This document shows positions 11,617 through 12,651 of a stretch of DNA of 39,069 nucleotides, one piece after another. The stretch comes from Thiovulum sp. ES (lineage in GTDB: Bacteria; Campylobacterota; Campylobacteria; Campylobacterales; Thiovulaceae), in assembly GCA_000276965.1 (NCBI GenBank), contig AKKQ01000011.1, forward strand, positions 1-39,069, read 5' to 3'. The notes under the pieces are model-generated. The model was not told the DNA's origin, did not search any database, and was given only the letters and a program-made list of their open reading frames with translations. A program made the translations under genes and the position numbers. Every line of letters begins with the position of its first letter. Positions within the stretch are counted from its first letter, which is position 1.

Positions 11617-11763
11617 TCAGTTGATTGAATTTATTTCCAATTGGATTCCAGTTTCAACAATTTCTAAACTTTTTTGTGGTGTGAGTTCTTCAGTTTCAAT
11701 TTTTTTCTCAATCGAATACGAACCAGTTTTACTTATAACACAGGAAAAAGATAAATTTGTCAT
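11617..11763 (-). pseudogene. Fragment resembling part of a Bro-N protein
   Basis: A 48-codon open stretch on the minus strand contains KTGSYSI followed by an acidic helix. The intact Bro-N protein at 15058 has the same KTGSYSI at the end of its Bro-N domain, followed by a similar acidic stretch. The fragment lacks the whole Bro-N domain, and its only ATG lies within a palindromic repeat, so it is probably a decayed piece of a related gene. The match is short and by eye only. Confidence 0.35.
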
Positions 11764-11784
11764 GTTCGAGCTTGACTCGGACAT
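11762..11784. repeat. Short palindromic repeat, copy A
   Basis: Arms ATGTTCGAG and CTCGGACAT (one G-T mismatch) around the loop CTTGA. The same arms recur at 12541-12586 with extra sequence in the loop. Confidence 0.7.
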
Positions 11785-11820
11785 CTTCACGAAAAGAAGA
11801 AGATTGTCATGTTAAGCTTG

Positions 11821-11839: not shown

Positions 11840-11881
11840 TCGTTTCAGTGCCACATTCCATTCTGTTTCATTTGACATACT

Positions 11882-11902
11882 CCCCATAGCTAAAGCTAGG
11901 GG
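11882..11902. repeat. Right-end hairpin, copy 1
   Basis: On the minus strand CCCC-TAGC, loop TTTA, GCTA-T-GGGG. It is identical over 21 bases to the copy at 12080-12100. This copy is the one adjacent to the TCAA end. Confidence 0.85.
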
Positions 11903-12079
11903 ATTCTGTTTCATCGAGAAAAGCCTAAAAAAATAGGTCTTACTTCCTCTCCACAAGAGTTGATGCCCCAACTCAAATTTATATCCGAGATTTTACCCTT
12001 CGCGATATTTTCAATACAAATTATACATAAAATTATTTCAAGTGGATAAATCCACTATCATAATTTTAAAGCCTTATAT

Positions 12080-12100
12080 CCCCATAGCTAAAGCTAGGGG
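12080..12100. repeat. Right-end hairpin, copy 2
   Basis: Identical to the copy 198 bases to the left. It lies 77 bases past the tnpB remnant stop and lacks the AGTATGTCAA tail, so it may be an internal scaffold hairpin or the remains of an older element end. Confidence 0.8.
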
Positions 12101-12177
12101 CTTTACGGCTTGTTTTGGGTAAAGCAAAATCTCTTGATTAAAATCGCAATAACCGAGATTATTGTTATGATTATGGG

Positions 12178-12651
12178 TCAAGCTCCCCGAGTTAAATTTT
12201 TGAGGAAAATTCCTCTTGCTCCGTTAATGTCTCTATCCACAGAAAAATTATTACCTTTAATTATCTTTTTTGAACCAAGTTTATTATCAATTTCACCATT
12301 CCAAGATTTTGTTTTTGAAGTGTAGCTTTCATTCACATCAACAACATGTTTTCCGTATTTCTCGGCATACAATTTGAGCTTTAACTTAAATTTATAATGA
12401 TTTAAATCAAGCATATTTCTTGCTGTAATTCGTCGTATTTTTCTTTCACCTTTTTTAGAGGCATCATCTATTTTAAAATAGCGGAAAGTTTTCCAAATAA
12501 GCTCAAATCTATTCCTTTTTTTAATTATAGCTATTTTGTCATGTTCGAGCTTTTCCTGAAACAAGTTCAGAACTTGACTCGGACATATAGTTGAGATTTT
12601 GCCGTATTTGTTATGGTATCTGACAATGTCAAAAAAAGTCAAATCCGACAA
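12178..12651 (-). pseudogene. tnpB: C-terminal remnant of TnpB, zinc-ribbon cysteines lost
   Basis: TnpB proteins are RNA-guided nucleases of about 400 residues encoded by IS200/IS605 and IS607 elements. Only the C-terminal part is left. ARNMLDLNHYKFKLKLK and YGKHVVDVNESYTSKT match the segment leading into the zinc ribbon, and VDRDINGARGIFLK contains the last RuvC aspartate. In intact relatives the ribbon has two Cys pairs (SKTCSxCG ... CxxC); here the positions read SKTKSWNG and KGNNF, so all four are gone. The N-terminal domains and first RuvC acidic residues are missing. A nested palindromic repeat supplies about 15 codons near the start (12541-12586). The product cannot be an active nuclease, but the frame is open for 157 codons. 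Confidence 0.75.
12541..12586. repeat. Nested palindromic repeat, copy B
   Basis: The outer arms ATGTTCGAG/CTCGGACAT are identical to copy A at 11762. In the loop sits a second palindrome, CTGAAACAAGTTCAG (12556-12570). The inner 15-mer occurs again, inverted, at 38927-38941. Confidence 0.75.

What the first reader, a model, noticed from the sequence alone, without database searches (positions are those of the whole stretch)
11872..12651. Decayed TnpB locus with omega-RNA-like end and loss of all zinc-ribbon cysteines
The minus-strand remnant keeps the last RuvC aspartate context (VDRDINGARG) but reads SKTKSWNG and KGNNF where Cys pairs are expected. A hairpin plus GGGGAGTATGTCAA marks a right end. 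The frame is nevertheless open for 157 codons, and the hairpin occurs twice, identically, 198 bases apart. Either a pure relic, or a fragment retained for another role such as a regulator derived from TnpB.
Basis: partly seen in the sequence, partly recalled or inferred. Interest (0 to 1): 0.55.

Follow-up and report, generated by a model that had tools for sequence, protein, structure and literature searches.

The report
Relic of a zinc-finger-less TnpB transposon
The window holds a shortened copy of a bacterial jumping gene whose RNA-guided DNA-cutting enzyme belongs to a little-noticed, apparently intact group that does without the usual zinc-binding cysteines, while the striking pair of identical hairpins beside it belongs to a different small transposon.

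Summary
(1) ORF 12178-12651(-) is an internally deleted (about 1.1 kb lost) IS607-type tnpB whose own right end lies at 12131. (2) The twin hairpins are the left and right palindromes of a separate 247-bp IS608-like MITE, 11872-12118, inserted after TTAC 12 bp beyond that end; seven complete copies were found in this genome.

The missing cysteines are not decay. Relatives with full-length genes in two Thiovulum genomes (79-83% identical over the shared C-terminus) lack them too, as do relatives in other Campylobacterota, Vibrio, Pseudoalteromonas, Endozoicomonas and Vibrio phages. The group keeps the D-E(alt)-D RuvC residues and mostly the DPG motif of pro-Fanzors; several copies carry an IS607 transposase; the predicted fold is closest to mimivirus Fanzor2; the right end encodes an RNA scaffold with covarying helices and a pseudoknot. 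More distant zinc-less relatives make up 19 of 37 tabulated viral-contig hits. The published pro-Fanzor search demanded four cysteines and could not have returned them.

The window copy is a relic; the family behind it looks like a working zinc-finger-less TnpB variant. Nuclease activity is inferred, not shown.

The parts
12178..12651 (-). 157-codon ORF (TTG start): internally deleted IS607-type tnpB remnant
12208..12399 (-). TNB (former zinc-ribbon) and RuvC-III region; keeps E(alt) in NESYTSKT and the RD of VDRDINGARG, no ribbon cysteine
   Evidence: Pfam PF07282; alignment with full-length relatives
12460..12470 (-). deletion junction; about 1,110 nt present in L055 are missing here
12471..12526 (-). 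5' part of the same element, 80% identical to L040/L055
12131..12192 (-). right-end RNA scaffold of the IS607-type element (hairpin, two stacked stems, 3' pseudoknot), ending AATCAAGAG at 12131
12535..12586 (.). REP-like dispersed palindromic repeat inside the remnant's 5' region
11872..12118 (-). separate 247-bp IS608-like MITE
12080..12100 (-). left subterminal palindrome of the MITE, preceded by AAAG (the IS608 left guide)
11882..11902 (-). right subterminal palindrome of the MITE, preceded by GAAT (the IS608 right guide)
11872..11875 (-). right cleavage motif TCAA
12119..12122 (-). TTAC flank, the IS608 target tetranucleotide, left of the MITE

Best explanation
The locus is two nested mobile-element fossils. 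The older is an IS607-family element whose TnpB belongs to a group that has lost the C4 zinc ribbon but keeps the RuvC active site in the Fanzor/pro-Fanzor arrangement (E moved next to the former ribbon). In full-length members the serine recombinase TnpA would move the element, while TnpB, loaded with an RNA cut from the 3' end of its own transcript (scaffold ending ...AATCAAGAG, guide read from the flanking DNA), would cut empty donor sites so that the element is kept. The window copy lost the middle of the gene, so it can neither bind the RNA nor cut; its right-end scaffold still folds. Later an IS608-type MITE jumped in after TTAC 12 bp beyond that right end. Shown by computation: the relationship, the deletion, the residues, the RNA covariation, the MITE anatomy. 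Inferred: RNA processing, DNA cutting, donor-site retention.
For: Five Thiovulum relatives share C-terminus and right end with the window; three have a complete gene (L055, L056, L057), L054 and L065 start at a contig edge. Ribbon cysteines are absent in 19 of 20 loci of the genome scan and one remains in the other, L060. In an alignment of 32 proteins the residues D181, E332 and D365 are invariant; in 39 of 39 E(alt) rows the canonical E site is P, and 31 of 39 have DPG. IS607-type TnpA in L056. NCBIfam guided_TnpB 116.6 bits over a cut-off of 100. Predicted fold pLDDT 84.5, best match mimivirus Fanzor2, Z 25.3 over 363 residues. RNA scaffold: covariation score 0.433 against 0.169 +/- 0.018 in shuffles, 0 of 500 as high; RNAalifold finds the pseudoknot helix and both stems by itself. 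dN/dS among the five relatives 0.056-0.16. MITE: 7 of 7 complete copies after TTAC and ending TCAA.
Against: No activity or RNA data. Two of the five covariation measures (pairs with change on both sides, 43/500; further pair types, 80/500) do not stand out from shuffles, and helix 1 is paired in only 85.7% of cells; I wrote the tested structure after looking at these sequences. Several members are broken (stop in L060 TnpB; frameshifts in L069, L070, L073; fragment L072). In L054 and L055 no TnpA was found. The family is rare: in the phylum sample only the window's own genome matched, 1 of 397. No empty site could be shown, since the gene order around the locus differs in both relatives.
Confidence: 0.9

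Rival explanations
1. The fragment was kept for another role, for example a small regulator or RNA-binding protein derived from TnpB, or its right-end RNA is still used.
For: The ORF is open for 157 codons, the right-end scaffold keeps its pairs, and window-versus-relative dN/dS is 0.09-0.21 over the last 93 codons, below 1.
Against: The low ratio is mostly history shared with functional relatives: the window branch alone has 3 synonymous and 4 non-synonymous changes, too few to tell. The N-terminal RNA- and DNA-binding half is gone; the first codons are repeat DNA; no second copy of the deleted form was found in this genome.
Confidence: 0.05
2. The hairpin pair and the tnpB fragment are one IS605-type element whose tnpB decayed and lost its cysteines on the spot.
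For: They lie next to each other in the same orientation; an element with the same ends as the MITE and a 363-aa TnpB exists in this genome (C72).
Against: The tnpB fragment has its own right end, conserved in five relatives that lack the hairpins; the C72-type TnpB has four ribbon cysteines and a canonical active site; the MITE occurs alone elsewhere.
Confidence: 0.02
3. The zinc-less group is nuclease-dead and works as an RNA-guided binder or repressor (as recalled for TldR proteins).
For: Loss of a conserved domain feature can accompany loss of cutting; TNB is near the active site in solved TnpB.
Against: All three RuvC acids are invariant in 32 proteins, 25 of them zinc-less; TldRs, as I recall them, lose these acids.
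Confidence: 0.12

Closest known systems
pro-Fanzor TnpB / Fanzor2 (IS607; NAR 2023, PMC10711439; mimivirus Fanzor2, PDB 9b0l)
   Same: E(alt) active-site layout in 39 of 39 rows, DPG in 31 of 39, IS607-type TnpA, closest solved fold and sequence.
   Different: No C4 zinc ribbon; hosts are Campylobacterota, marine Gammaproteobacteria and phages rather than cyanobacteria, to which the paper assigns pro-Fanzors.
IS607 TnpB with RAGATH-18 reRNA (ISFba1; PMC11061315, PDB 8iaz)
   Same: IS607 family, right-end RNA with stems and pseudoknot, second- or third-ranked fold match.
   Different: No Rfam family matched seven of the loci at E <= 0.1, so the scaffold is not a recognisable RAGATH-18; no zinc ribbon.
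IS608 / ISHp608 (IS200/IS605 family)
   Same: For the MITE only: AAAG and GAAT guides, near-identical palindromes, TCAA end, TTAC target; Campylobacter and Helicobacter plasmids hold similar ends.
   Different: 247 bp, no genes; no relation to the tnpB fragment.
ISDra2 TnpB (PDB 8h1j/8exa)
   Same: Overall fold (Z 22.8-23.8) and a pseudoknot at the 3' end of the RNA scaffold.
   Different: ISDra2 has the canonical E position and a CCCC zinc finger in TNB.

Membership tests
TnpB (RNA-guided nuclease family) | Match above the curated cut-off of a TnpB model | tested here: met
   NF040570 116.6 bits, cut-off 100, for L057; also L082 and L050. The window fragment itself, 47.8 bits, is below it.
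TnpB (RNA-guided nuclease family) | RuvC D-E-D acids | tested here: met
   Invariant D181, E332, D365 in 32 proteins. The window fragment keeps only E(alt) and the last D.
TnpB (RNA-guided nuclease family) | C4 zinc finger, called strictly conserved by Bao and Jurka 2013 | tested here: not met
   0 ribbon Cys in 19 of 20 loci of the genome scan, 1 in L060; among 39 E(alt) tree rows 24 have 0, six have 1, nine have 4 or 5. The 2023 paper says only 'many' TnpBs have it.
TnpB (RNA-guided nuclease family) | Right-end omega-RNA / reRNA scaffold ending at the element boundary | tested here: met
   Covarying scaffold in 24 sequences, 21 distinct; expression not tested.
TnpB (RNA-guided nuclease family) | RNA-guided DNA cutting | not testable with these tools
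   Needs a bench assay.
pro-Fanzor (DPG + E(alt) TnpB) | DPG in RuvC-I and E six residues before the first ribbon position | tested here: met
   E(alt) 39 of 39, DPG 31 of 39; exceptions DQG, DVG, DGG, DLG, DCG.
pro-Fanzor (DPG + E(alt) TnpB) | CxxC...CxxC after E(alt), part of the search pattern that defined the published set | tested here: not met
pro-Fanzor (DPG + E(alt) TnpB) | Groups with Fanzor2 in a tree | tested here: inconclusive
   E(alt) rows form one side against canonical TnpB, 99/96, but no Fanzor row was in the tree.
IS607 family | Serine-recombinase TnpA with N-terminal MerR-type HTH next to tnpB | tested here: met
   Intact in L056: Resolvase 62.3 bits, MerR 31.3 bits; NF033518 106.5 bits, just under its cut-off of 110. 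TnpA-like DNA in 18 of 25 sources searched; none beside the window fragment, L054, L055, L065, L068, L071 or L072.
IS608-like MITE | IS608 guides, palindromes, TTAC target and TCAA end | tested here: met
   7 of 7 complete copies for TTAC and TCAA; motifs as printed in PMC5934647.
TldR (nuclease-dead TnpB-like repressor) | Full-length TnpB fold with lost RuvC acids (recalled) | tested here: not met
   Full-length relatives keep the acids; the window fragment lacks the N-terminal half.

The most novel reading that the evidence does not exclude
A broad radiation of IS607-type, DPG/E(alt) TnpBs in marine bacteria and phages has dispensed with the zinc ribbon and still cuts DNA under guidance of a pseudoknotted right-end RNA; it was hidden because searches for Fanzor ancestors required the four cysteines, and it widens the pool of Fanzor relatives beyond cyanobacteria.
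Probability: 0.6. Interest if true: 0.65.

Novelty: new variant of a known kind. Interest (0 to 1): 0.5.

Why it matters
The C4 zinc finger has been described as strictly conserved in TnpB/Fanzor (PMC3627910) and sits beside the active site. A family that keeps the active site and guide RNA but not the finger is a natural experiment on what the finger is for, and offers compact (about 380 aa) zinc-free nucleases to test. It also questions the statement that pro-Fanzors occur only in cyanobacteria (PMC10711439), which bears on where eukaryotic Fanzors came from. The window locus itself is an ordinary relic.

Tried and rejected
Rfam: nothing near the locus reached a gathering score and seven relative loci gave no match at E <= 0.1. 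An intact copy in the window's own genome: none found; the other TNB hits there are a different, cysteine-bearing kind or fragments. Viral-contig scans with L055-type, L052 proteins as single queries gave no relative; F100 and F88 proteins gave one each. Empty site in the two Thiovulum relatives: glyQ is found, but the upstream neighbour is not beside it, so no comparison. dN/dS of the remnant: too few changes. One origin of zinc loss: the tree needs three changes, but one clade is not rejected (p-AU 0.12), so the number of losses is open; several long branches meet, so the backbone is unsure. I first took the conserved TnpB N-terminal extension (KPYWN..LWLP) for a domain; in L056 it is the +1 frame of tnpA, and I left it out of tree and model. 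The left end of the element was looked at by eye only (ACAG before the element in several copies) and is not claimed.

Rows dropped before the tree: of 62 loci tabulated, 19 were left out as duplicates or fragments (L060, L065, L068-L073, L075, L078-L081, L086, L093, L103, L104, L112, L113); one canonical row (L052b) was dropped. L107-L109 (same match as L106) and L114 (same place as L100) were not tabulated.

Literature: no zinc-less TnpB group appeared in the listings; the library lacks most subscription papers, so this is weak evidence of novelty.

Full report
Observation. The minus-strand ORF, the odd cysteine-less ribbon text and the two hairpins are all in the window. The ORF carries a Pfam TNB match (E 2.3e-11) and a partial guided_TnpB match (47.8 bits, below the cut-off of 100), so it is tnpB-derived and not a chance ORF.

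Two elements. The 256-bp stretch 11872-12127 recurs through the genome. Aligning copies with their flanks gives a 247-bp unit, 11872-12118; seven complete copies (window included), six at 98-100% and one at 86%, are all preceded by TTAC and end in TCAA. AAAG precedes the left palindrome and GAAT the right one. These are the left and right guides, target and cleavage motifs printed for IS608 (PMC5934647, passages seen). As DNA the right hairpin folds better than shuffles (z -3.7), the left one does not (z -0.7). The unit has no room for a transposase: it is a MITE. A Y1 transposase is present elsewhere in the genome, and one longer element with the same ends and a 363-aa TnpB lies on contig C72.

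The tnpB fragment has a different right end. BLASTN of the window against five Thiovulum relatives gives one block, window 12130-12459, at 83-92% identity, running past the stop codon to ...AATCAAGAG and stopping there in four of five (L047 goes on four bases further); a second block, 12471-12526, matches the 5' part of L040 and L045. Between them about 1,110 nt are missing. The element therefore ends at 12131 and the MITE starts 12 bp further on. A REP-like repeat lies in the 5' part.

The organism. The window genome (206 contigs, 2.08 Mb) is unnamed; G001 is of its genus and has contigs of the same length and match as Candidatus Thiovulum imperiosus, so Thiovulum is an inference from kinship.

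Cysteine loss is a family trait. Protein search of 100 related genomes gave strong matches in G001 and G002 only, besides the window's own (two more genomes have weak, cysteine-bearing or distant matches). A scan of GTDB genomes returned 20 loci in 13 genomes: Thiovulum, Sulfurovum, other Campylobacteraceae/Sulfurovaceae, Vibrio, Pseudoalteromonas, Endozoicomonas. In 19 of 20 the ribbon interval has no cysteine; L060 keeps the first one. Vibrio phages F88 and F100 carry zinc-less members. A wider viral-contig scan gave 40 loci; of the 37 tabulated, 19 are zinc-less, 12 are C4 members of the same active-site type, 4 are canonical C4 TnpBs, one is a canonical fragment and one (L103) could not be read. 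The patterns used in that scan came from an alignment rich in zinc-less members, so the proportion is not a census. The family is rare in the window's phylum: 1 of 397 sampled genomes, the window's own.

Active site. In 39 of 39 tree rows of this type the canonical RuvC-II glutamate site is a proline and a glutamate stands six residues before the first ribbon position; 31 of 39 have DPG. These are the features that the 2023 paper gives for Fanzors and pro-Fanzors (PMC10711439: sections 10 and 23 read, other passages seen). Its search pattern requires CxxC...CxxC, so zinc-less sequences were excluded by design. In 32 aligned proteins, 25 zinc-less and 7 with cysteines, the three acids are invariant.

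Tree. With the ribbon columns left out, the E(alt) rows separate from six canonical rows (99/96), and the 16 rows from Campylobacterota, marine Gammaproteobacteria and phages F88-like and L101/L102 form one fully zinc-less clade (100/99). Zinc state needs three changes; a single zinc-less clade is not rejected (p-AU 0.12).

Transposase. L056 encodes a 186-aa serine recombinase with a MerR-type HTH (Pfam Resolvase 62.3 bits; NCBIfam IS607 transposase 106.5 bits, just below its cut-off of 110) overlapping tnpB in another frame. TnpA-like DNA was found in 18 of 25 sources searched, in some with internal stops. In T. imperiosus copies the tnpA frame carries stops and tblastn finds no TnpA.

RNA. 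Right ends of 24 sequences (window included) share a scaffold of one hairpin, an outer and an inner stem and a pairing between the first loop and the 3' end. Of 461 cells 93.7% pair (79.6% in shuffles), covariation score 0.433 (0.169 in shuffles, at most 0.103 when slid); two count measures do not exceed shuffles (43/500 and 80/500). RNAalifold recovers 16 of these pairs without being told, 9 of them with double changes. A scaffold-end pseudoknot is also known in ISDra2 omega-RNA (PMC10097598, passages seen). The window copy keeps most of these pairs.

Structure. AlphaFold2 on the 381-aa core: pLDDT 84.5, pTM 0.77; the blocks covering the former ribbon (residues 331-370) have mean pLDDT 72-90. 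Best solved match is mimivirus Fanzor2 by Foldseek (E 1.2e-18) and by VIA-align (Z 25.3, 363 aligned, rmsd 4.7), then ISDra2 and ISFba1 TnpB.

Selection. Among the five relatives dN/dS is 0.056-0.16 over 93 codons; window against relatives 0.091-0.21; the window branch has 3 synonymous and 4 non-synonymous changes. This fits a functional family and an undecided, probably dead, window copy.

Verdict. The window copy is a relic; its interest is that it points to a zinc-finger-less, apparently functional TnpB group. Activity, RNA processing and donor-site retention are inferred from known TnpBs.

Noticed in passing
L049:1720-3261 (Vibrio phage F88): Zinc-less TnpB sits between the tail assembly chaperone and tape measure genes; its tnpA remnant lacks the HTH part, so it may act as a homing-type gene.
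   Followed up: partly
L056:2342-2725 and similar starts: The conserved N-terminal extension of annotated TnpBs (MEELVQ...KPYWN..LWLP) is the +1 frame of IS607 tnpA; yet in L054/L055 it stays open and similar although the tnpA frame has stops.
   Followed up: partly
11753-11785 and 12535-12586: REP-like repeat around TGTCATGTTCGAGCTT...GACTCGGACAT, with weaker dispersed matches on other contigs.
   Followed up: no
L025:1485-1644 and L028:1540-1627: Shorter MITE relatives (right-end part only) that also start right after TTTAC.
   Followed up: no
L027 (G000 C72:4821-6174): Element with the MITE's ends and a 363-aa cysteine-bearing TnpB; a Y1 transposase lies at C72:7551-7916.
   Followed up: partly
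L060 and L097: Members that keep only the first ribbon cysteine (SKTCSW), possibly intermediates of the loss.
   Followed up: no
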